Source: Candidatus Methanorudis spinitermitis (GTDB taxonomy: Archaea; Methanobacteriota; Methanobacteria; Methanobacteriales; Methanobacteriaceae). Taken from it: a DNA stretch of 64,000 nucleotides. The stretch's first letter is position 1, and every line of letters starts with the position of its first letter. The notes under the pieces are model-generated. The model was not told the DNA's origin and ran no database searches. It saw only the letters and a program-made list of their open reading frames with translations. The stretch covers positions 1 through 64,000 of the forward strand of contig JAITUQ010000039.1 in assembly GCA_031286225.1 (NCBI GenBank), given 5' to 3'. A program made the position numbers and the translations under genes. Shown in pieces: positions 28,186 to 61,875 of this stretch.

Positions 28186-28656
28186 ATGATAATGAAGATT
28201 ATTGAAAGAGAAACTTTCTATATTTGTGGATATGGTGTCGAAACAACTGGTGATAAAAATGTTGAAGACCTTTCCAATCTATACAAAGATTTTTTTGCTA
28301 GTGACAAGGAATCCATTTTACTAGGTTTCTCAGGTAGTAAAAAAGGATATTTTGGATTAATGTGGTACACATCAGGACATGAAAAATATTATTATCTCCT
28401 TGGCATTGAGGTGGATAAAGAGAATGAACTGCCTGAAAGTGCAATACTCAAAACCGTTCCTAAAACTACCTATGCAGTTGCCTATTATCCTCATGATAAA
28501 GATGCTGTTGAAGCATGGACAGAATTTTTCTATACAGATATTTCCAAAGAAGGTTATGCTATCAATGAACAACATAATCTTTACTTTGAGTATTTTTCAG
28601 AAAATGTAGATGGAGATTATGAATTATGGGCTCCAGTAGTGAAATCTGATGAATGA
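28186..28656 (+). CDS. GyrI-like small-molecule-binding domain protein
   Basis: A stand-alone 156-residue effector-binding domain of the GyrI/AraC-effector type: an IIERETFYICGYGVE first strand, LGFSGSKKGYFGLMWY, the YYYLLGIEVDKENELP core, the TYAVAYYPHD strand, then EAWTEFF and YAINEQHNLYFEYF, ending with ELWAPVVK. Known members bind hydrophobic or cationic ligands, sense drugs or inhibit gyrase. No DNA-binding domain is present. ATG 28186 and ATG 28192 are both possible; GGTG is 3 nt from the first. A related but broken gene lies at 61381-61636, and nine further GyrI-like domains occur in the three large proteins at 33-41 kb. Confidence 0.75.
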   Translation: MIMKIIERETFYICGYGVETTGDKNVEDLSNLYKDFFASDKESILLGFSGSKKGYFGLMWYTSGHEKYYYLLGIEVDKENELPESAILKTVPKTTYAVAYYPHDKDAVEAWTEFFYTDISKEGYAINEQHNLYFEYFSENVDGDYELWAPVVKSDE

Positions 28657-28847
28657 AATATCCTTAATAATCAATATCTTCACAAATTGTAATATTTTCA
28701 TTTTTCCAATTATTTTTACTACTTTTGTTCTATTTTTTTATTTTTCAAATTTATTTTAATTAATATATTAAAATTTAAATAATAAATATATAATAATTAA
28801 ATTATTATATTTATAAAATCATTAATAATTAGCTATTTGGTGATATA

Positions 28848-29507
28848 ATTATTGATTGGGTTGTTAAGATAGGAGGAAGTTTATTTCCACAGAAAGCTAT
28901 TGAACTGGTAAATGCATTAAAAGGCACTAATTGTTTAATAATAAATGGTGGAGGAGACTTTGCTAATCTTGTCCGTGAATATGACTGGGAAATAGGATTT
29001 TCAAATCATATTACTCATGAAGTAGCTATTGATTCAATGGATATTATAGCTAAACTACTTAATGACAAATTTGAATTTACAAAAATTGTATATGACTTAG
29101 ATGAAGTAAAAAAAATAGCTAATTTAAATAAAATTCCAATATTAGCTTGTTCAAAAATATTAAAGGATTTAGACCCATTTGAACATTCTTGGAATGTAAG
29201 TTCAGATTCAATAGCTGCATATGTTTCAAACCTTTTAGAAGCAAAACTTTTAATAGCAACAAATGTAGATGGTATATATACCCGAAAACCTACACATGAT
29301 ATGTCAAATTTTATCGATGAAATTGATGCTAAAGAACTACTAAATTTTGATGAAACATCGGTTGATTTGATGTTAGCTGAGCTACTCTCTAAATTCGGGT
29401 CTAATTGTTTTGTTGTAAATGGAAACTATCCTGAAAGGGTTCTGTCTATTATTAACAACAATATTGATGCTTATGATTTTCAATACACATATATTCGAGG
29501 TGATTAA
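28848..29507 (+). CDS. mfnE: Amino-acid-kinase-family enzyme, probable MfnE (methanofuran biosynthesis)
   Basis: MfnE phosphorylates 5-(aminomethyl)-3-furanmethanol phosphate to the diphosphate in methanofuran synthesis. Seen: a start VVKIGGSLF (kinase phosphate loop), LIINGGGDFANLVREYD, then ATNVDGIYTRKPTHD and a C-terminal FVVNGNYPERVLSII, the arrangement of the archaeal MJ0458-like group. Start: the first ATG is 29037, but that would remove the nucleotide-binding loop and about 63 residues. The frame is open upstream, and GGTGAT (28839-28844) lies exactly 3 nt before an in-frame ATT at 28848. ATT is therefore the likely initiator, giving 219 residues, the usual size. Its last codons contain the GGTGAT of the zinc-ribbon gene, which starts one base after the stop. 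Confidence 0.82.
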   Translation: MIDWVVKIGGSLFPQKAIELVNALKGTNCLIINGGGDFANLVREYDWEIGFSNHITHEVAIDSMDIIAKLLNDKFEFTKIVYDLDEVKKIANLNKIPILACSKILKDLDPFEHSWNVSSDSIAAYVSNLLEAKLLIATNVDGIYTRKPTHDMSNFIDEIDAKELLNFDETSVDLMLAELLSKFGSNCFVVNGNYPERVLSIINNNIDAYDFQYTYIRGD

Positions 29508-31063: not shown

Positions 31064-32320
31064 ATGTTTGATCTTATCTTAGCTTGCTTTTTAGGAATAA
31101 TTTGTGGTGCGTTTACAGGAATAATTCCAGGAATTCATGTTAACACAGCGGGAGCTATTGTATTTGCATCCTCTACTTTTCTTTTAAGCTTCCTATCCCA
31201 TGAGTTTTTATGTGTTATGTTAATAGCTATGTCTGTAGCACATGCTTTAATTGAATTTGTACCTTCTATTTTTCTTGGTGTTCCTGAGGAAGGAACAGCT
31301 CTATCAGTTCTTCCAGGACATAGGATGGTTCTTGAAGGTAGATCTAAAGAAGCTATTAGAATCGTTTCATTAGGAGGATTTGGAGCTATCATAGTAATTA
31401 TTTTCTTGTTACCTATTTTTGCTATTCTTTTACCTACTTTTCATTCTTTTACTAAAGAAATTACTTTTATAATATTACTATCTGTTTCTTTATATATGAT
31501 TTGGAGATTAAGTAATGGAAAAAAAGCATTTTTTTTCTCACTTCTTTTATTTATTTTATCTGGAATTTTAGGATGGATTGTATTTCAAACTCCAATTTCA
31601 TCTGGAGTTTCATTAATGTGTATTTTTTCAGGACTTTTTGGAATAAGTACAATAATGTTCAGCTTAAAAGAAAGTTCTTTTATTCCACATCAAAACAAGT
31701 TTTATGACTTAAATTTAAATAGACATATGTTAAAAGGAATTTTCGCTGGAGGAGTAGCTGGGGCTATTTTATCATTTTTACCAGGGTTTGGACCAGCTCA
31801 AGGTGGAATAATAGCTCAAGAAGCAAGCGGTGGAAGTGGTGAAAATGGTACTGAAAATTTTTTAACAGCTATAAGTGGATTAAACACATCAGATACTTTA
31901 TTTTCTGTAATTACAATTTATTTAATTGGAAGGCCTAGAAGTGGAATAGCTGTTTACATGAATTATTTAATTGAAACATTTTCAATATCCCATCTTTTAA
32001 TTTTTTCTTTTGCTGGACTACTAGCTGCTTCAATATCAGTAATAATTTGTTTAAAAATCGGCGACGGCTTTTCAAAGCTAATTGAAGGAATTGACTATAA
32101 AAAATTATCTATCTTTGCTATAATTTTAATGATAGTTATTTTACTGGTATTTGCAATAATTTATGAGGTATCTATTCCATATTTTGTACTTATTTTAATT
32201 ACTTCAACTGCTTTAGGACTCTTACCTCACTATTTGGGAGTTAGTAAATCACATTTAATGGGTGTTTTAATCATTCCAGCTATGATAATTTATTTTAACA
32301 TATTTATTACTAGTCTATAA
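31064..32320 (+). CDS. TctA-like (DUF112) multi-pass membrane protein
   Basis: The 418-residue integral membrane protein has about ten to twelve helices. Seen: the TctA-type motif FTGIIPGIHVNTAG near residue 18 and its internal repeat FLPGFGPAQGG near residue 240, both with conserved Pro/Gly. TctA is the large permease subunit of tripartite tricarboxylate carriers. This archaeal DUF112 form lacks TctB and TctC partners here, so the substrate is unknown. TGTGAT lies 3 nt before the ATG. No operon partner is evident. Confidence 0.78.
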   Translation: MFDLILACFLGIICGAFTGIIPGIHVNTAGAIVFASSTFLLSFLSHEFLCVMLIAMSVAHALIEFVPSIFLGVPEEGTALSVLPGHRMVLEGRSKEAIRIVSLGGFGAIIVIIFLLPIFAILLPTFHSFTKEITFIILLSVSLYMIWRLSNGKKAFFFSLLLFILSGILGWIVFQTPISSGVSLMCIFSGLFGISTIMFSLKESSFIPHQNKFYDLNLNRHMLKGIFAGGVAGAILSFLPGFGPAQGGIIAQEASGGSGENGTENFLTAISGLNTSDTLFSVITIYLIGRPRSGIAVYMNYLIETFSISHLLIFSFAGLLAASISVIICLKIGDGFSKLIEGIDYKKLSIFAIILMIVILLVFAIIYEVSIPYFVLILITSTALGLLPHYLGVSKSHLMGVLIIPAMIIYFNIFITSL

Positions 32321-33236: not shown

Positions 33237-34664
33237 ATGAATAATGAAGTAAGAGTTGAGGATGTTGATATAGGGAAAATAGCTGCTATAAAACATCAAG
33301 GTTCTTTTAAAGAGTTTAATTTAATTTTTAAACAAATGGAGAGTTGGATTAAAGATAACAATTTTAAAAATACTGGAACTTATTTTTTCAGATTTGATCC
33401 AGAATACAAGGATTTATCAAGGGATAATCTACTTTTTGAGCTAGGTATATCTGTAAAAAACATAGCTAAAAATGAAAATCTCGCAAAAATTTATCAAATC
33501 CTTGATCGTGACGTTATATCTGCACTATATAAAGGACCTTATTCTAATCTTCCTTCAATTCATGGAATTTTAGAAGATTATGCGAGAAAAAATGATTTAG
33601 CACCTATGGATTCTCCTACAGAGATTTATTTAAACGACCCCTTTGAAGTAAAATCCAATGACCTATTAACAGAAGTTCAATTTACAGTATTTGATTTCAA
33701 ATCTGAAGATATTCCTTATGTTCCATTATTTAGTAAGATTGAAAGAAAGACAATAGAAAAACAAACAATGGCGATTATAGAACATTATGGACTTATTGAA
33801 GATGTTTATAAAGTTCGTATAGATTTAATTAAATGGGCTGAAAAGCACAATATTAAAGTAGATGCTATACATTTTAAACATTACTTTAATCCAGAGGGAA
33901 TTACTCCTAGAGGAATGGTTTTTAAAGCTGGAACGCCTGTAGACGATGATTTTAAAGGTGATGGGGATATGAAAATTGTAGAAGTTCCTGAACATGAAGT
34001 ATTATCTGCAGTATACAAAGGGCCTTATGTGAATATTCCTAATGTTACTAGAATGATGGTAGATTATGCATTTGAAAATAATTTTGAACTTATTGATTTT
34101 GCTGAAGAAATTTATTTAAATAGTATTTTTGATGTAAGCTGTGATGATTTGCTTACAGAAGTTAGAATGGATGTGATTGACTTTAATTTTGATAGAAATA
34201 TCAAATTAGAAAAGGAAATTGAAAGAAAAACAATTGAAATACATCAAATAGCTTCTATAAGACAAACTGGATCTTTTCAAAAGGTTAATAAAATTAAAAC
34301 AGATTTATTCAATTGGATTGAAAAAAATAACATTAAAACATCAGGAAATTATTTTTTAAGATTTCATAATCATCCACGTAGCTTATCTCCAGAAAATATT
34401 TCCTATGAAATAGGAATACCTATAGATGGTGATGTTGAAGATCTTATATTAGTAATAGATTTTCCAATTCATAAAATTTTGTACTATACTCATAAAGGAC
34501 CAATTTCAACTCTCAAAAATACCCATGATTTTATCTACAACTATGCTAAAGAAAATGAATTTATACCAATTAATATTCCTGTAAATTCTTTTATTGATAA
34601 ATTTCCTGAAAATATTGAGGATGAGCAAATTATTGAAGTTGGACTTCCAGTGAAAAAGATTTGA
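33237..34664 (+). CDS. Triple GyrI-like effector-binding protein, copy 1
   Basis: The 475-residue protein consists of three GyrI-like ligand-binding units (about 1-160, 165-320 and 325-475) with no DNA-binding or membrane part. Each unit has a first strand plus helix (KIAAIKHQGSFKEFN in unit 1, MAIIEHYGLIEDVYK in unit 2, IASIRQTGSFQKVNK in unit 3) and the second-half signature YKGPYxN...DYAxEN...EIYLN in units 1 and 2. Unit 3 is weaker (HKGPISTLKNTHDFI). Known: GyrI-like domains bind hydrophobic or cationic small molecules and usually come as one unit or fused to AraC/MerR regulators. The three-unit form repeated in three genes, two with a conserved leader hairpin, is unusual. The GGGG before ATG is the ribosome site. 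A MATE pump gene follows at 35530. Confidence 0.75.
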   Translation: MNNEVRVEDVDIGKIAAIKHQGSFKEFNLIFKQMESWIKDNNFKNTGTYFFRFDPEYKDLSRDNLLFELGISVKNIAKNENLAKIYQILDRDVISALYKGPYSNLPSIHGILEDYARKNDLAPMDSPTEIYLNDPFEVKSNDLLTEVQFTVFDFKSEDIPYVPLFSKIERKTIEKQTMAIIEHYGLIEDVYKVRIDLIKWAEKHNIKVDAIHFKHYFNPEGITPRGMVFKAGTPVDDDFKGDGDMKIVEVPEHEVLSAVYKGPYVNIPNVTRMMVDYAFENNFELIDFAEEIYLNSIFDVSCDDLLTEVRMDVIDFNFDRNIKLEKEIERKTIEIHQIASIRQTGSFQKVNKIKTDLFNWIEKNNIKTSGNYFLRFHNHPRSLSPENISYEIGIPIDGDVEDLILVIDFPIHKILYYTHKGPISTLKNTHDFIYNYAKENEFIPINIPVNSFIDKFPENIEDEQIIEVGLPVKKI

Positions 34665-35029
34665 TTATTTTTATCATACTTTTTTTAAATTTATAAGTTT
34701 ACACTTCTATAAGCTATTTATATTTTTTTTAGTCTTTTTTTTTATTGTTATTATTTGCTTTTGATTGTTTTTTATCATTTTAATTTATTTGTTATTATTT
34801 GTTTTTGATTGTTTTTTTATCATTTTAATTTATTTGTTATTATTTGTTTTAAATTATTTCTTTAATCTTTTTTATTACATTAACATTTATTATTATTTAT
34901 TTTTACTAAAAAAATTGTCCATAAAAATTGATATTTTCAAATATTATGAGGTTTTATAGATATTAAAGATTATTATTGAAATATTTCTTTAAGATATTTT
35001 AAAATTTTATTAATATATGGCATATCACT
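34665..35029. repeat. Short tandem repeat after copy 1
   Basis: At about 34749-34860 the 48-bp unit TTATTATTTGTTTTTGATTG...TTTTAATTTATTTG repeats twice with a partial third. The low-complexity 64-codon frame it creates is not a gene. The rest is AT-rich. Confidence 0.55.
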
Positions 35030-35190
35030 AAAAAATTGTAACAAGTGATAATTTCCATGATTTTATAAAAACTTTTAAAAATCCTTTAATCTAATTTAAA
35101 GAACGTTTATAGATATAAAACACGTTTATAGATATTAAATATTATTAAAATTAAATTATCTGTAGCAAACCTTTAGTAACAGACTATAAA
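35030..35190. repeat. Left arm of an imperfect long inverted repeat
   Basis: Two blocks are shared in reverse orientation with 39330-39480. Block one is about 90 bp, from CACTAAAAAATTG (35036) to about 35117, roughly 85-90% alike by eye. Block two is about 35 bp around CTGTAGCAAACCTTTAGTAA (35158-35190). An extra 25 bp or so, including a duplicated CGTTTATAGATAT, lies between the blocks in this arm. The pair encloses the MATE pump and the second triple-GyrI gene. Confidence 0.65.
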
Positions 35191-35529
35191 TTAAATTTTG
35201 AAAATATTCATTTAATTTTAACTAAATATTTTTTAAAAAAACAAGAATTTTAATAAAAGGCATGTTTGTTAATCTTAAGAAATGTCAAAAAAGTTTTTTT
35301 TTTAAATAATTTCACTAATGATTATAATTAAACAAAAAATTTAAATTGACTAAACATAATAGATTAATTATATTATAGGATTATATAACTTTTATCATAT
35401 AGATATATATACTATGATTTTTAATTATAATTTTCTTAAATTTTTAAAATTTTTATTATAATTATTTATCACATTTTTTATCATAGTTTTATAATTTTTT
35501 TATTATTTTTTCATAATGAGAGGGTATCA
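35191..35529. other. Leader of the MATE gene
   Basis: AT-rich sequence with a TATA-like TATATATACTATG near 35405. GAGGG lies 5 nt before the MATE start. No frame is supported. Confidence 0.35.
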
Positions 35530-36972
35530 ATGATTGATATTGACAGGGATAAGAAAAAATTTCATCAGGATTTGAATAATAATTCAGAAAAAAATAATGA
35601 AGTAACAGATGGTGTTTCAACTATATTGGGAGACCCAAAAAAAGCTATTTTAAAGTTTCAACCTTTGATAATAGCTATGATAATTGCTGCATTGAATAAT
35701 ATAATTGATATAATGTGGATTTCTGGTCTTGGTCCTAATGCATTAGCTGCAGTTGGATTTATAACTCCTCTGCTTGGAATAATCACTGGACTTTCAAGTG
35801 GTCTTAGTAGTGGAGCAGTATCAGTTTTATCTAGGTTTATTGGGGCTAATAATAAAAAAGAAGCAGATAATGCTGCACTTCATATATTGTTTGTTACAAT
35901 TATATTTACTGTAATTATAATGATTACAGTAGGTTTATTCCTTGAACCAATTCTTATAATGCTTGGAGCAGGTTCTACAGTAGATCTTGGACTTCACTAT
36001 GGTTATATAATATTTGGTGGTGCTATTTTCCCAATGTTCACCACAGCGGCACATGGTATTCTTAGAGCAGAAGGAAATATTAATAAAACAATTTATGCAA
36101 TGGCAATTGCAGCTCTTTTGAATATGATTCTTGATCCTATATTCATTTATACATTAAATATGGGAATAGCTGGTGGAAGTTTAGGTACTATACTATCACT
36201 GGTTGTAGCAACTATGGTAATACTTTACTGGTTTAGAGGAGATACATATATTGATCTTTCACTTAAAAATTTTAAATATAATCCAGATACTATTAAAAAA
36301 ATCTTAACTGTTAGCTTACCTGCTGGTTCAGAATATTTCATAATAGCATTATCTGTTGGAGTAATAAATATGATATTAGTCACTGTTTCAGGTACTCATG
36401 GAGTAGCTATTTTCACAGTTGGCTGGAATTTCATTTTATTAGCTATTATTATTTTAGCTCCTCTTTCTATTTCTACAATAGCTACTGTAGGATCATCTTT
36501 AGGTGCAAAAAAATATGAAAACTTTAATATTATTCAAAATTTTTCTACGAAATTAGGAATTTTAATAGCTATTATAATGGCGATAGCTACTTTTCTGTTA
36601 GCACCATATATTGCAGTAATATTTACCTATTCTTCAGAAGCAACAGGTCTCAGTGGCCCAATAACTGAATTTTTAAGATTGATGGCAGTATTCTTTTTAT
36701 TTGTTCCAATAGGATCTGTTGCAACATCCATGTTCCTTGGTGTTGGAAAAGGGCTTGAATCTTTCATATTAATTACATTAAGACAATTCTTATTATCTGT
36801 TGTGCTTGCATATGTTTTAGCTATTCCTTTAGGATTTGGTCAACAAGGAGTATGGTGTGGAATAATTTTTGGAAACATAATTGGAAGTTTAATTGCTCTA
36901 TTATGGTCTAAATTATACATAAAAAAAATTATAGCAACTAATAAAGAAGAACACAATCCTATAAAGTCATAA
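35530..36972 (+). CDS. MATE family multidrug efflux transporter
   Basis: An integral membrane antiporter with twelve predicted helices in two bundles. Seen: the first-bundle segments QPLIIAMIIAALNNIIDIMW and NALAAVGFITPLLGIITG, the FGGAIFPMFTTAAHG helix, and second-bundle GWNFILLAIIILAPLSIST and PIGSVATSMFLGVGK. The length of 480 is typical. A hydrophilic 40-residue N-terminus precedes the first helix. It exports cationic drugs or metabolites using Na+ or H+ (family knowledge). Its position between two triple-GyrI genes and inside the inverted repeat suggests that the two activities share ligands; this is inference. Confidence 0.88.
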   Translation: MIDIDRDKKKFHQDLNNNSEKNNEVTDGVSTILGDPKKAILKFQPLIIAMIIAALNNIIDIMWISGLGPNALAAVGFITPLLGIITGLSSGLSSGAVSVLSRFIGANNKKEADNAALHILFVTIIFTVIIMITVGLFLEPILIMLGAGSTVDLGLHYGYIIFGGAIFPMFTTAAHGILRAEGNINKTIYAMAIAALLNMILDPIFIYTLNMGIAGGSLGTILSLVVATMVILYWFRGDTYIDLSLKNFKYNPDTIKKILTVSLPAGSEYFIIALSVGVINMILVTVSGTHGVAIFTVGWNFILLAIIILAPLSISTIATVGSSLGAKKYENFNIIQNFSTKLGILIAIIMAIATFLLAPYIAVIFTYSSEATGLSGPITEFLRLMAVFFLFVPIGSVATSMFLGVGKGLESFILITLRQFLLSVVLAYVLAIPLGFGQQGVWCGIIFGNIIGSLIALLWSKLYIKKIIATNKEEHNPIKS

Positions 36973-37562
36973 CAATTTATCCTATGAGTGAAAGTTAAAA
37001 TTCAATAAAAATTTAAAGCTGTATTACAAAAATTTTACAAAAACTATTAATTTTTTTTTTAAAATCATTATTTTTATTATTATCCCTATTCTAATTTTTT
37101 ATTACTAAAATTAAACTATTAAAACTTTTTTTGAGAATATTGGATTTATTTACAACCAAAAAATATACAAAAATTACTTTAATTTAAAGGTTTTTTTATA
37201 TAGTTATCGAAAGTGTTTTTAATAACTTTTTTAATAATATATTTAAAGAGGATTTTTTCTCTAAAAAAACCACTGTAGGTTGATATGAGTTTTACCATTA
37301 TTATAATCTAAAAATTATATATTCTATATTTAGAATAATACTTATTGATTCAATAAGTCCATAGCTATTGTTATTAAAAGAGATAAAAATGATCTTGAAA
37401 ATTATATCTAAATGCTTGATGATTTTTAATAAGATGATGAAGTATATATTATTAAAATTTTAGAAAAATGATAAATTTCTGTTTTAAGGTGATTAATAAA
37501 GATTTAATACCTTTAATAATATTTCAGATGTGTTAATAATTTTTTTTCGATTTGGGGTTTAA
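36973..37562. other. Leader of triple-GyrI copy 2, homologous to that of copy 3
   Basis: From about 37070 to 37290 this leader matches the leader of copy 3 (39530-39730): TTTTTTATTACTAAAATTAAA-like, AACTTTTTTGAGAATATT-like and AAAGAGGATTTTTTCT blocks in the same order. The GAGGATTTTTT-CTCT-AAAAAAACC hairpin is at 37248-37270. No coding frame is present. Confidence 0.5.
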
Positions 37563-38987
37563 ATGGATAAAGAAGTTAAAATTGAAAATATGAAAGCAGG
37601 AAGTTCAGCTATTATAAAACACAAAGGCTCTTTTGAAGAGCTCAATTTAATTTACAAGCAGATAAATAAGTGGGTTAAAGATAAAAATTTTGGAATCTTT
37701 GGAAATTTTTATTCTAGATTTGATTTCGAGCACAATGACTTATCCTCTAATAATATATTATTTGAGCTTGGGATACGTGTAAAAGAAAAAATTAAGGATA
37801 AAAATTTTGTTAAAATTGTTGAAGTCCCTGGACGCGAGGTTATATCTGCATTATATAAAGGACCTTATTTAAATCTTCATTCAATACATCAAATCTTAGC
37901 AGATTATGCAAGAAAGAATGATCTTGCACCTATGAGCTATCCTACAGAAATATATTTAAATGATCCTCTTAAAGTAAAATCTAATGAATTATTAACTGAA
38001 GTTCAATTTCCAATATTAGATTACAATCCTGAAAACATTCAATATGTTCCATTAGTTACTAACATTGAAAAAAAAACAATAAAAAAACAAAAGATGCTTG
38101 TTATGGAACACTATGGATTCATTGAAGACGTTTTTAAAGTTCGTGTAGATTTACTTAAATGGGCCGAAAAACACAGTATTGAAGTAAAAGCTTTTCATTT
38201 TAAATATCATGCGAATCCAGATGGAATTTCTCCAGAAGGAATGGTTTTTAGAGTTGGTATACCTGTAGATAGAGATGTTAAAAAAGATAGTAATATGAAA
38301 ATTGTGGAAAATCAAGAACATGAAGTTTTATCTGCAGTATACAAAGGACCTTATGTGAATATCCCTAGTGTTGCTCGAATGATGGTAGATTATGCATTTG
38401 AAAATAATCTTGAAATTATTGATTTTGCTGAGGAAATTTATTTAAATAGTATTTTTGATGTAAGTTGTGATGATTTACTTACTGAAGTTAGAATGGACGT
38501 GATGGATTTTAACTTTGATAGAAATATCAAATTAGAGAAAGAAATTGAAAGAAAAATAATTAAAAAACATGAAGTTGCTTTTATAAGACAAACTGGATCT
38601 TTTGAAAAGATAAATAAAATCAAAACAGATTTATTCAACTGGGTCGAAAAAAATAATATTAAAGTATCAGGACATCATTTTTTAAGATTTATTAACCATC
38701 CAAGTTTATATCCAGAAAATATTTCCTATGAGATAGGAATACCTATAGATAGTAATGTTGAAGGTGTTATGAAAGTATTAAGTTATCCAAAACATAAAAC
38801 TTTATCTTTAACTCATACAGGATCCATTTCAACTCTTAAAGATACACATGAAATTATAAAAAATCATGCTGAGGAAAATAAGTTTCAGCTACTTGGTCTT
38901 CCTGTAACTTCTTTTGTGGATAAAATCCCTGAAAATCATGAAGAGGAGCTATTGATTAAAGTTCGCCATCCTGCAAGAAAGATTTAA
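37563..38987 (+). CDS. Triple GyrI-like effector-binding protein, copy 2
   Basis: The 474-residue paralogue of the gene at 33237 has the same three-unit plan: unit 1 SAIIKHKGSFEELNLIYKQI with LYKGPYLNLHSIHQILADYA, unit 2 MLVMEHYGFIEDVFKVRVDL with VYKGPYVNIPSVARMMVDYA, unit 3 VAFIRQTGSFEKINKIKTDL with a modified THTGSISTLKDTHE. It is nearer to copy 3 than to copy 1 by residue identity, and shares its leader with copy 3. GGGG lies 5 nt before the ATG. It is inside the inverted repeat together with the MATE gene. The function is most likely ligand sequestration or sensing, since no regulatory domain is attached. Confidence 0.75.
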   Translation: MDKEVKIENMKAGSSAIIKHKGSFEELNLIYKQINKWVKDKNFGIFGNFYSRFDFEHNDLSSNNILFELGIRVKEKIKDKNFVKIVEVPGREVISALYKGPYLNLHSIHQILADYARKNDLAPMSYPTEIYLNDPLKVKSNELLTEVQFPILDYNPENIQYVPLVTNIEKKTIKKQKMLVMEHYGFIEDVFKVRVDLLKWAEKHSIEVKAFHFKYHANPDGISPEGMVFRVGIPVDRDVKKDSNMKIVENQEHEVLSAVYKGPYVNIPSVARMMVDYAFENNLEIIDFAEEIYLNSIFDVSCDDLLTEVRMDVMDFNFDRNIKLEKEIERKIIKKHEVAFIRQTGSFEKINKIKTDLFNWVEKNNIKVSGHHFLRFINHPSLYPENISYEIGIPIDSNVEGVMKVLSYPKHKTLSLTHTGSISTLKDTHEIIKNHAEENKFQLLGLPVTSFVDKIPENHEEELLIKVRHPARKI

Positions 38988-39329
38988 TTTTAGTTATCAC
39001 TTACTTTTTATTAAGAGGTATGTATTATTTATAGATTAAGGTATGTATTATTTTCTGGTTTTTTTTTAATTTTATAAATTAAGATCTCTTGTCATTAATT
39101 GCTGGTTTTTTTTATTTTATCAAATTAAAACTTAATTTGAAAAGGGTGATATATAGTATAGCACCAAATTTTTGGTAAAATTACTTATAATTTTTTAATG
39201 GATAAAATTATTTTATTTATCTTTAAAATTATTTATTATAAATATTTATTAATATAATCCGTTTTTATAGTTTATTTTAACATTTAATAAATTTTAACTC
39301 TTTATTTTAAAAAATATTCATTTCAATTA
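38988..39329. other. Gap after copy 2
   Basis: It contains a direct repeat AGGTATGTATTATT (39016 and 39040 areas) and AT-rich DNA. No frame is supported. Confidence 0.35.
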
Positions 39330-39480
39330 TAGTCTATTGCCAAAGGTTTGCTACAGATGGTTTAATTTTGAAAATATTTAATAGTTATAAATATTCTTTA
39401 AATTTAAATTAAAGGATTTTTAGAAGCTTTTAAAAAATCATGAAAATTATCATTTGTTGCAATTTTTCAGTAATGTACTA
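39330..39480. repeat. Right arm of the imperfect long inverted repeat
   Basis: This is the reverse complement of the 35030-35190 region: TAGTCTATTGCCAAAGGTTT at 39330-39350 and the block from TAAAGGATTTTTAGAAG (39410) to TTTTTCAGTAATG (39474). The spacer between blocks is about 25 bp shorter than in the left arm. It lies between triple-GyrI copies 2 and 3. Confidence 0.65.
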
Positions 39481-39982
39481 TAAAATTAAAAAATTAATTT
39501 TTGCAAAAATAATGTTTTTGTACTGTATTATTCCTCTCATAATTTTTTATTAATAAAACTAAAATATTAAAACTCTTTTTGGGAATATTAAATCTATTCA
39601 CAATCAAAGCTATACTTAAATTACTTAATTTAAGGCTTTTTTTATAATTATCGAAAATTTTTTAAATAACTTTTTCAATAATATATATAAAGAGGATTTT
39701 TTCTTTAAAAAATCATTGTAGATTTATGAATGTTTAATTGTCATATTATAAAAATTGCATATTAAAATTTAAGAATAGTGACAATTGATTCATCCATTAG
39801 CCATTGTCATTTTAAAAAATGAAAAATAAAGGGGAACATTATATTTCATTGCTTGATTATAAGATTGTGAAAGACATATTTTAGAAAAATTCGTAAATCC
39901 CATGCTTCAATCTGATTAACAGGAATTTCTCTACTTAATAATATTCTAATTTGATTAATAATTTTTGATTTTGAGGGATTGA
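39481..39982. other. Leader of triple-GyrI copy 3
   Basis: It is homologous to the copy-2 leader over about 200 bp, including the hairpin GATTTTTT-CTTT-AAAAAATC (39695-39714) and the following CATTGTAGATT. GAGGG lies 5 nt before the start. There is no frame. Confidence 0.5.
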
Positions 39983-41413
39983 ATGAATAAAGAGGTTCAA
40001 GTTGGAATTATGGAAGCAGGACGTGCTGTTACTATAAAACATAGTGGTTCTTTTGAAGAACTCAATTTGATTTATAAAAAACTAAACAAATGGATTAAAA
40101 ATAACAATTTTAAAAGTGCTGGAGATTATTATTCTAGATTTGATTTGAAACATGAAGATGTATCATCTAATAACATATTTTTTGATAGTGGTATACGTAT
40201 AACAAGTGAAATTAAAGATAAAAATTTTGTAAGAATCATTCAAGTCCCTGAATGTGAAGTTATATCTGCATTATATAAAGGACCTTATTTCAATCTTCCT
40301 TCAATTCATGGAATCTTAGCAGATTATGCAAGAAAGAATGATTTAGTACCTATGGATTTCCCTACAGAAATATATTTAAATGATCCTCTTGAAGTAAAAT
40401 CCAATGAATTATTAACTGAAGTTCAACTCACGGTATTGGATTACAAGCCTCAAAATATTCAATATGTTCCATTAGTTAATAAAATTGAAAGAAAAACGAT
40501 TAAAAAGCAAAAAATGCTGACTATGGAAAACTATGGATCTATTGAAGATGTTTTTAAAGTTCGTGTAGATTTACTTAAATGGGCTGAAAAACATGATATT
40601 AAAGTAAATACTGTTCATTTTAAATACAACATAAATCCAGAAGGAGTTTATCCTGAAGGAATGGTTTTTAAAGCTAGCATACCAATTGATGGGGATATTA
40701 AAGAAGAAAATAAGCTGAAAGTTGTGGAAATTCCTGAACATGAAGTTTTATCTACAGTATACAAGGGACATTATGTAAATATTCCTAATGTTACTAGAAT
40801 GATGGTGGATTATGCATTTGAAAATGACCTTGAACTTATTGACTTTCCTGAAGAAATTTATTTAAATAGTATTTTTGATGTAAGCTGTGATGATTTACTT
40901 ACTGAAATTAGAATGGATGTAATAGATTTTAACTATGATAAAAATATCAAATTGGAGAAAGGAATTGAAAGAAAAATAGTTAAAAAACATGAACTTGCTT
41001 TTATAAGACAAATAGGATCTTTTGAAAAGATTAATGAAATTAAAACCGATTTATTCAATTGGGTTGAGAAAAATAATATTAAAACATCAGGATATCATCA
41101 TTTAAGATTTATTAACCATCCACATAGCTTATCTCCAGAAAATATTTCCTATGAAATTGGAATACCTTTAGATAGTGTTGTTGAAAATATTATAAAAGTA
41201 CTGGATTTTCCAAGACATAAAGTTTTATCCCTAGCTCATAAAGGACCAATTTCAACTCTTAAAAGTACTTATGATGTCATTAAAAGTTATGCTGAAGAAA
41301 ATGGTTTTCAGCTACTTGGTCTTCCTGTAACTGGATTCATAGATAAAATCCCTGAAAATCATGAAGAGGAACTATCTATTATAATTCAGCATCCAGTAAG
41401 AAAGATTGTGTGA
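39983..41413 (+). CDS. Triple GyrI-like effector-binding protein, copy 3
   Basis: The 476-residue third paralogue has unit 1 AVTIKHSGSFEELNLIYKKL with LYKGPYFNLPSIHGILADYA. Unit 2 is MLTMENYGSIEDVFKVRVDL with VYKGHYVNIPNVTRMMVDYA, where KGPY is KGHY. Unit 3 is LAFIRQIGSFEKINEIKTDL with AHKGPISTLKSTYDV. The conserved EIYLN-DP...LLTEVQ strand of unit 1 and the SIFDVSCDDLLTE strand of unit 2 are nearly identical to copies 1 and 2, implying strong constraint on unit 2's far edge. It ends 18 bp from the stop of the convergent methyltransferase gene. Confidence 0.75.
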   Translation: MNKEVQVGIMEAGRAVTIKHSGSFEELNLIYKKLNKWIKNNNFKSAGDYYSRFDLKHEDVSSNNIFFDSGIRITSEIKDKNFVRIIQVPECEVISALYKGPYFNLPSIHGILADYARKNDLVPMDFPTEIYLNDPLEVKSNELLTEVQLTVLDYKPQNIQYVPLVNKIERKTIKKQKMLTMENYGSIEDVFKVRVDLLKWAEKHDIKVNTVHFKYNINPEGVYPEGMVFKASIPIDGDIKEENKLKVVEIPEHEVLSTVYKGHYVNIPNVTRMMVDYAFENDLELIDFPEEIYLNSIFDVSCDDLLTEIRMDVIDFNYDKNIKLEKGIERKIVKKHELAFIRQIGSFEKINEIKTDLFNWVEKNNIKTSGYHHLRFINHPHSLSPENISYEIGIPLDSVVENIIKVLDFPRHKVLSLAHKGPISTLKSTYDVIKSYAEENGFQLLGLPVTGFIDKIPENHEEELSIIIQHPVRKIV

Positions 41414-61113: not shown

Positions 61114-61380
61114 TTATTATTTTATTATTATTCCCACACTTAATTATTTCAGCTTTTTTTATTTTTATTATTATTTTTTATAAAAATTACTATTTTTATT
61201 TTGATAAAATTTTTAATAAACAATCTTTTTTAAAATTATTATAATTTATATTCCATAATTTATATTTAATTATTAAATCAATAAATGATTTTAATAATAT
61301 ATTTTTAATTATAACTTTATTTAAAATATTATAATTAAAAATAAAATAATATTTTAGAATTAAATTATTTTAAAATTTAG
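61114..61380. other. AT-rich gap after the ferredoxin gene
   Basis: No frame is supported. T-runs at 61150-61170 could terminate the cdh transcript. Confidence 0.35.
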
Positions 61381-61636
61381 AAAAACAAGGATTTTGCAGA
61401 GCTTAAGAACTTTTCCAAAAGTATTATTGATAAAGAAGGGTATATTCTATTATCTTTTTTTGCTGTTGTAATTGTTTCAAAAGAAATGACAGCTATTGAA
61501 GCTTGGACAGAGTTTTTACAAAGACATACCAGAAAGTGAACACATACATAATGAATAACATGGAATATACTTCGAATTTCACAACGAAAAAGGAAATTTT
61601 GAACTTTGGACACAAATAAAATCAATAGACAAATAA
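61381..61636 (+). pseudogene. Broken GyrI-like gene
   Basis: An open but start-less frame reads KNKDFAELKNFSKSIIDKEG and then, in the same frame, TAIEAWTEF, matching the paralogue at 28186 (AVEAWTEFF). A one-base shift near 61520 moves the match into the next frame (KDIPESEHIHNE), where a TAA (61556-61558) interrupts it before HGIYFEFHNEKGNFELWTQIK, matching NLYFEYFSENVDGDYELWAPV. The 5' half and start are missing. It is a decayed GyrI-like gene with one frameshift and one in-frame stop. Confidence 0.75.
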
Positions 61637-61875
61637 TTAGGTTTTCATAAGTTTTAATAATTTCACTTTTTAAAAGGATATTTTACTGTATTGCTCATCG
61701 TTTCTTTTTTTGAAATACTTTTTATTGAATATGTTTAAATATAATTGATTTTAATCTAATAGTGTAATAATTCTGTTTTCAAGAAAAATTTTTATAGCTA
61801 TTTTTACCAGAATATTAATTAAAGATGATATTTATGGGAAAAATCATAAAAAAATTATTATGGAGTGTGTAAATT

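What the first reader, a model, noticed from the sequence alone, without database searches (positions are those of the whole stretch)
33237..41413. Triplicated three-domain GyrI-like proteins around a MATE efflux pump: candidate new ligand sensing/sequestration system
Three paralogous genes each encode three tandem GyrI-like domains with no regulatory domain attached: nine domains in 8 kb. A MATE pump lies between copies 1 and 2. Two further GyrI-like loci, one intact (28186) and one broken (61381), occur in the window. GyrI-like domains bind hydrophobic or cationic molecules (family knowledge). Inference: the proteins sequester or sense compounds that the pump exports.
Basis: partly seen in the sequence, partly recalled or inferred. 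Interest (0 to 1): 0.75.

Follow-up and report, generated by a model that had tools for sequence, protein, structure and literature searches.

The report
Triple-domain drug-binding-like proteins in methanogens
A methane-producing archaeon of a gut-dwelling group carries a small cluster of unusual proteins, each made of three fused copies of a small-molecule-binding domain, beside an efflux pump; the fusion is found in all three sequenced members of its genus and in no other genome of its phylum searched, so it may be a lineage-specific way to mop up toxic compounds, though no ligand is known.

Summary
Three intact genes (33237-34664, 37563-38987, 39983-41413) each encode three GyrI-like domains (PF06445, E 1e-34 to 1e-36); a MATE pump gene lies at 35530-36972; the extra loci at 28186 (intact) and about 61.4 kb (broken) are real. 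New here: (1) The fusion occurs in all 3 genomes of the genus (11 copies) and in none of 149 other Methanobacteriota genomes, where the domain occurs singly. (2) Domains 1, 2 and 3 each form one clade across the 11 proteins: domain triplication came first, gene amplification later. (3) Domains 1 and 2 always keep the conserved groove glutamate (22/22); domain 3 has always lost it (0/11), as in the albicidin trap STM3175/YgiV. (4) All domains are under purifying selection. (5) A MATE gene neighbours a fusion gene in all three genomes, but gaps of 590-995 bp argue against one operon, so pump coupling is only suggestive. Best reading: cytoplasmic multi-pocket binding (sequestration) proteins. The ligand is unknown; sensing, carrier and enzymatic roles are not excluded. 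New variant of a known kind, of moderate interest.

The parts
33237..34664 (+). Copy 1 (W1): three tandem GyrI-like domains, about residues 1-160, 164-322, 325-475
   Evidence: PF06445 E=1.7e-34; orthologue group on the TctA side of the array
35530..36972 (+). MATE-family efflux transporter
   Evidence: TIGR00797 177 bits over cut-off 147.4; array-linked MATE clade, support 100/99
37563..38987 (+). Copy 2 (W2): three tandem GyrI-like domains
   Evidence: PF06445 E=3.6e-34; methyltransferase-side paralogue group
39983..41413 (+). Copy 3 (W3): three tandem GyrI-like domains
   Evidence: PF06445 E=1.2e-36; AlphaFold model shows six beta-alpha half-modules
31064..32320 (+). TctA-type membrane protein that borders the array on the left, also in G002
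   Evidence: PF01970 E=2e-58; orthologue next to three fusion genes on L066
41432..42706 (-). Methyltransferase-like gene that borders the array on the right, also in G001 and G002
   Evidence: weak MTS/PrmA match; orthologues beside fusion genes on L033 and L067
28186..28656 (+). Single-domain Cass2/GyrI-like protein, a different subfamily
   Evidence: PF14526 E=9.2e-13
61350..61640 (+). Remnant of a single-domain GyrI-like gene broken by frame changes (approximate ends)
   Evidence: fragments in two frames
35016..35188 (+). MITE-like dispersed repeat, left of the MATE and copy 2 segment; judged not part of the system
39328..39482 (-). Second copy of the same repeat in inverted orientation, between copies 2 and 3; judged not part of the system

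Best explanation
The genes encode cytoplasmic small-molecule-binding proteins built from three fused GyrI-like domains. Shown: the domains, the single origin of the fusion, later gene amplification, purifying selection, retention of the canonical acidic groove residue in domains 1 and 2, and its loss in domain 3. Inferred: domains 1 and 2 bind cationic or amphipathic toxic compounds, and domain 3, like the glutamate-less groove of STM3175/YgiV, either binds an uncharged aromatic compound or serves as a scaffold. The protein works by trapping the compound stoichiometrically rather than by switching transcription, and extra pockets per chain and extra gene copies raise trapping capacity. Inferred with less confidence: the neighbouring MATE pump exports the same compounds, so that trap and pump form a loose resistance island.
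For: Profiles: PF06445 at E 1e-34 to 1e-36 with no other domain. Closest solved relatives by profile are CtaZ (E 2.4e-10), EcmrR and CTR107, all ligand binders. Foldseek of the full model finds only GyrI-like folds on top: Rho-tag, CTR107, STM3175, EcmrR, CtaZ, BmrR, SbmC (E 3e-6 to 7e-5). The groove glutamate of the ExY motif is in 22/22 domains 1 and 2, and in 0/11 domains 3. D1, D2 and D3 each form one clade, support 99-100. NG86 dN/dS is 0.14-0.61 in every domain and pair tested. Fusion in 3/3 genomes of the genus and 0/149 other genomes of the phylum. A MATE gene neighbours a fusion gene in all three genomes, and the array-linked MATEs form one clade. Precedent: a GyrI-like domain whose gene amplification traps albicidin and raises resistance up to 1000-fold (PMC10414762).
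Against: No ligand, binding or expression evidence. Intergenic gaps of 590-995 bp and no apparent shared upstream motif argue against co-transcription with the pump. Linkage within three species of one genus can be inherited synteny. One copy in G001 (contig 164) has an AAA ATPase rather than a MATE beside it on its short contig. The model is only moderately confident (pLDDT 67, pTM 0.50). Single-domain relatives are nearly universal in the phylum (141/152 genomes have PF06445), often beside moeA, which could point to a housekeeping role.
Confidence: 0.5

Rival explanations
1. A metabolite carrier or chaperone unrelated to resistance. The ancestral single-domain protein, next to moeA in many relatives, handles a cofactor or precursor (for example a pterin or tetrapyrrole), and the fusion is an expanded version; the MATE is a bystander.
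For: PF06445 proteins in 141/152 Methanobacteriota genomes; single-domain gene next to moeA in several genera; non-operonic spacing; the fold is related to heme-binding SOUL proteins (E about 3e-3).
Against: The moeA-linked gene is retained separately in the same genome and falls outside the fusion clade. Repeated gene amplification is more typical of dosage-limited binding than of housekeeping (inference).
Confidence: 0.22
2. Ligand sensors that act in trans: the fusion binds a compound and then a separate DNA-binding protein or RNA polymerase to induce the MATE gene.
For: GyrI-like domains often serve as sensors in BmrR, EcmrR, Rob and BrlR (structural hits). In related genomes single-domain genes lie beside a gene that looks TetR-like (that label rests on the start of the sequence only).
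Against: No DNA-binding domain in the proteins, no recognisable regulator among the neighbours examined, no apparent shared upstream motif.
Confidence: 0.15
3. Enzymes, such as the cyclopropanoid cyclopropyl hydrolases, that destroy electrophilic toxins.
For: Some archaeal and bacterial GyrI-like proteins are such hydrolases (PMC5684135); the lin2189 structures are found by profile and fold.
Against: The hydrolases use an acidic pair E157/E185 and an aromatic cage with W85 and W99 (PMC5684135). Each of the 33 domains has exactly one Trp, in helix 1, so the two-Trp cage is absent. E185 probably has its counterpart in D1 and D2 only.
Confidence: 0.1

Closest known systems
STM3175/YgiV GyrI-like albicidin trap (PMC10414762, PDB 7r3w)
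   Same: GyrI-like groove; lost groove glutamate (as in domain 3 here); gene copy number raises the effect; binding rather than catalysis proposed
   Different: One GyrI-like domain, fused to an AraC DNA-binding domain in STM3175; copies arise under drug selection, whereas here at least part of the duplication predates the split of the species and copies in the window share only 66-74% protein identity
CtaZ, closthioamide-binding protein of Ruminiclostridium cellulolyticum (PDB 7zhd, 7zhe)
   Same: Stand-alone GyrI-like protein of an anaerobe; best match to the domain profile (E 2.4e-10)
   Different: Single domain; its role in self-resistance is recalled from general knowledge, the paper was not in the library
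CTR107 and SAV2435 multidrug-binding GyrI-like proteins (PDB 5kax, 5kat; PMC12814168)
   Same: No regulatory domain; CTR107 has an EIYL motif like domains 1 and 2
   Different: Single domain; no gene array known to me
Cyclopropanoid cyclopropyl hydrolases, lin2189 and YtkR7 (PMC5684135)
   Same: Same fold
   Different: Need an acidic pair and a two-Trp aromatic cage that these domains lack
MATE efflux transporters (TIGR00797)
   Same: The pump gene passes the family cut-off
   Different: Ordinary member; substrate unknown

Membership tests
[quoted passage not shown]
   119-127 bits against 26; matches in all three thirds of each protein
[quoted passage not shown]
   Full-length model has six beta-alpha half-modules; top Foldseek hits are all GyrI-like; model confidence moderate. 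The model of domain 3 alone packed poorly (pTM 0.42, TM about 0.4)
[quoted passage not shown]
   Met in domains 1 and 2 (22/22), not met in domain 3 (0/11). The equation with E253/E185 is by position and by alignment to CTR107, EcmrR and CtaZ
[quoted passage not shown]
   needs a binding assay
Cyclopropanoid cyclopropyl hydrolase subfamily | Two-Trp aromatic cage plus acidic pair | tested here: not met
   One Trp per domain, in helix 1; cage residues from PMC5684135; the E157 position was not aligned directly
GyrI-like transcription regulators (BmrR, EcmrR, Rob, STM3175) | Fused DNA-binding domain | tested here: not met
   No such Pfam or NCBIfam match
MATE efflux transporter (TIGR00797) | Profile over cut-off with two MatE repeats | tested here: met
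   177 bits against 147.4; two MatE stretches
Known anti-phage defence systems | Match in PADLOC-DB | tested here: not met
   no match up to E 0.1

The most novel reading that the evidence does not exclude
A genus-specific multi-pocket 'sponge': one chain with two acidic and one non-acidic GyrI-like pocket, amplified in gene copy and paired with a MATE pump, forming an archaeal trap-and-export defence against several classes of gut toxins at once.
Probability: 0.2. Interest if true: 0.65.

Novelty: new variant of a known kind. Interest (0 to 1): 0.42.

Why it matters
Drug trapping by GyrI-like domains is an emerging resistance mechanism in bacteria. A lineage that has both tripled the domain within the protein and amplified the gene would show the same dosage logic fixed over evolutionary time, in an archaeon from an environment rich in plant and microbial toxins. 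It would also give a testable case of one chain with two kinds of pocket.

Tried and rejected
Phage or plasmid origin: no relative of the fusion in IMG/VR or PLSDB. Anti-phage system: no PADLOC match. Structured RNA in the gaps: no Rfam match in 28-43 kb. Shared operator: the upstream 170 bp of all 11 fusion genes and 5 MATE genes were compared by eye only, and no common motif beyond a purine-rich stretch before many start codons was seen. Inverted repeat around MATE and copy 2 as part of the system: rejected, because the same element is dispersed in 16 full-length copies in this genome and is absent at full length in the two congeners. Cyclopropanoid hydrolase: rejected on missing cage tryptophans. 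Single-domain relatives next to MATE in other genera: one case with a MATE about 4 kb away (L101) and none in the other fetched stretches around single-domain genes, so no general MATE link. The single-domain structure model of domain 3 packed poorly and was not relied on. Whether three-domain fusions exist in bacteria could not be tested genome-wide: the single genome-contig scan, which finds close relatives only, returned just the congener.

Full report
What is there. The three ORFs at 33237-34664, 37563-38987 and 39983-41413 are intact and start with ATG. Pfam finds PF06445 GyrI-like in each at E 1e-34 to 1e-36 and no DNA-binding or enzymatic domain; a six-frame search places matches in all three thirds. 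The ORF at 35530-36972 is a MATE transporter over its curated cut-off. The single-domain gene at 28186 and the broken remnant near 61.4 kb are as described. The genes are separated by 590-995 bp, so they are probably separate transcription units.

Where else it occurs. In 152 genomes of the phylum, full-length three-domain matches occur only in the three genomes of this genus: three copies here, three in G001 (68% complete) and five in G002. The other genomes that have PF06445 show frames of about 115-250 aa, usually one to five per genome (the list of matches is cut at the weak end). G002 is Methanobrevibacter sp. Th196P3bin91 in GenBank (its contigs have the same lengths as those of G002). 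A MAG with the same Th196 sample prefix is placed in the arthropod-gut genus Methanorudis (PMC13135261), so the genus is probably Methanorudis or a close neighbour (inference).

How it arose. On a tree of 33 domains and 9 single-domain relatives, domains 1, 2 and 3 each form one clade (support 99-100) and all 33 are separated from the single-domain proteins (100/97). So the domain was tripled once, and the tripled gene was then amplified. The 11 full proteins fall into two groups, one on the methyltransferase side of the locus (W2, W3, G2c135, G1c193) and one on the TctA side (W1 and the rest); each group has members from all three species, so this duplication is older than their split. G002 contigs show TctA plus three fusion genes, and a fusion gene plus the methyltransferase and the secretion-type ATPase gene, as in the window; G001 shows a fusion gene plus the methyltransferase. 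NG86 dN/dS values of 0.14-0.61 in all three domains indicate continued selection, with domain 2 the most constrained in every pair and domain 3 the least in most.

The pump. A MATE gene lies beside a fusion gene in the window, on G001 contig 119 and on both sides of a fusion gene on G002 contig 141. These four MATE genes form one clade within the family (100/99). By position alone, two close MATE relatives in a 1.9-Mb genome would put one inside an 8.2-kb array by chance in about 1% of cases, but the genome has more distant MATE genes too, and the three genomes share synteny and are not independent. No shared upstream motif was apparent by eye. Coupling is suggested, not shown.

What the domains can do. 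The closest solved relatives by profile are CtaZ, EcmrR and CTR107. The AlphaFold model (pLDDT 67) shows six beta-alpha half-modules, and its best Foldseek matches are Rho-tag, CTR107, STM3175, EcmrR, CtaZ, BmrR and SbmC. In solved relatives the groove glutamate sits in an ExY or ExF motif (E-I-Y in CTR107, E-S-Y in EcmrR, E-V-F in CtaZ). All 22 domains 1 and 2 have E-x-Y; none of the 11 domains 3 does: the glutamate is N, T, Y or I, and the tyrosine is always F. STM3175 and YgiV also lack this glutamate, STM3175 has a mostly hydrophobic groove and traps albicidin, and their gene amplification raises resistance (PMC10414762). Thus a natural reading is two acidic pockets and one neutral pocket or scaffold per chain. 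The cyclopropanoid hydrolases need cage tryptophans (PMC5684135); each domain here has a single Trp, in helix 1, so that enzymatic subfamily is unlikely.

Verdict. The sequestration idea is plausible by homology (about 0.5), the link to the MATE pump is weaker, and sensing has no direct support. It is a new variant of a known kind of ligand-binding protein.

Noticed in passing
35016-35188 (+) and 39328-39482 (-); 16 full-length copies in the genome: A 155-173-nt MITE-like element with imperfect terminal inverted repeats (TATAGT.TATTACT...) at 89-96% identity to a consensus assembled by eye (81% for the copy at 35016), absent at full length in the two congeners. Two copies in opposite orientation flank the MATE and copy 2 segment and could promote inversion or rearrangement.
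   Followed up: partly
about 28840-29507 (+): The MfnE-like kinase ORF listed from an internal ATG at 29037 extends upstream in frame (...IIIDWVVKIGGSLFPQK...) without an ATG, GTG or TTG before the conserved KIGGS, so it may use a rare start codon or have lost its start.
   Followed up: partly
L099 11020-11968; L101 5923-6974 (other Methanobacteriaceae): Pairs of adjacent single-domain GyrI-like genes in the same direction (gaps 37 and 119 bp), a possible model for how tandem fusion could begin; in L101 they lie divergent from a gene that looks TetR-like, with a MATE about 4 kb away.
   Followed up: partly
L001, L011, L034-L036, L038-L040: A single-domain GyrI-like gene sits next to a moeA-like gene in several genera of the family, including this genome (contig 8), hinting at an unexplored conserved role (moeA is named from the sequence, not from a profile search).
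   Followed up: no
L065 542-1744: One G001 fusion gene lies beside an AAA ATPase-like gene instead of the TctA, MATE or methyltransferase neighbours, so at least one copy may sit outside the main array.
   Followed up: no
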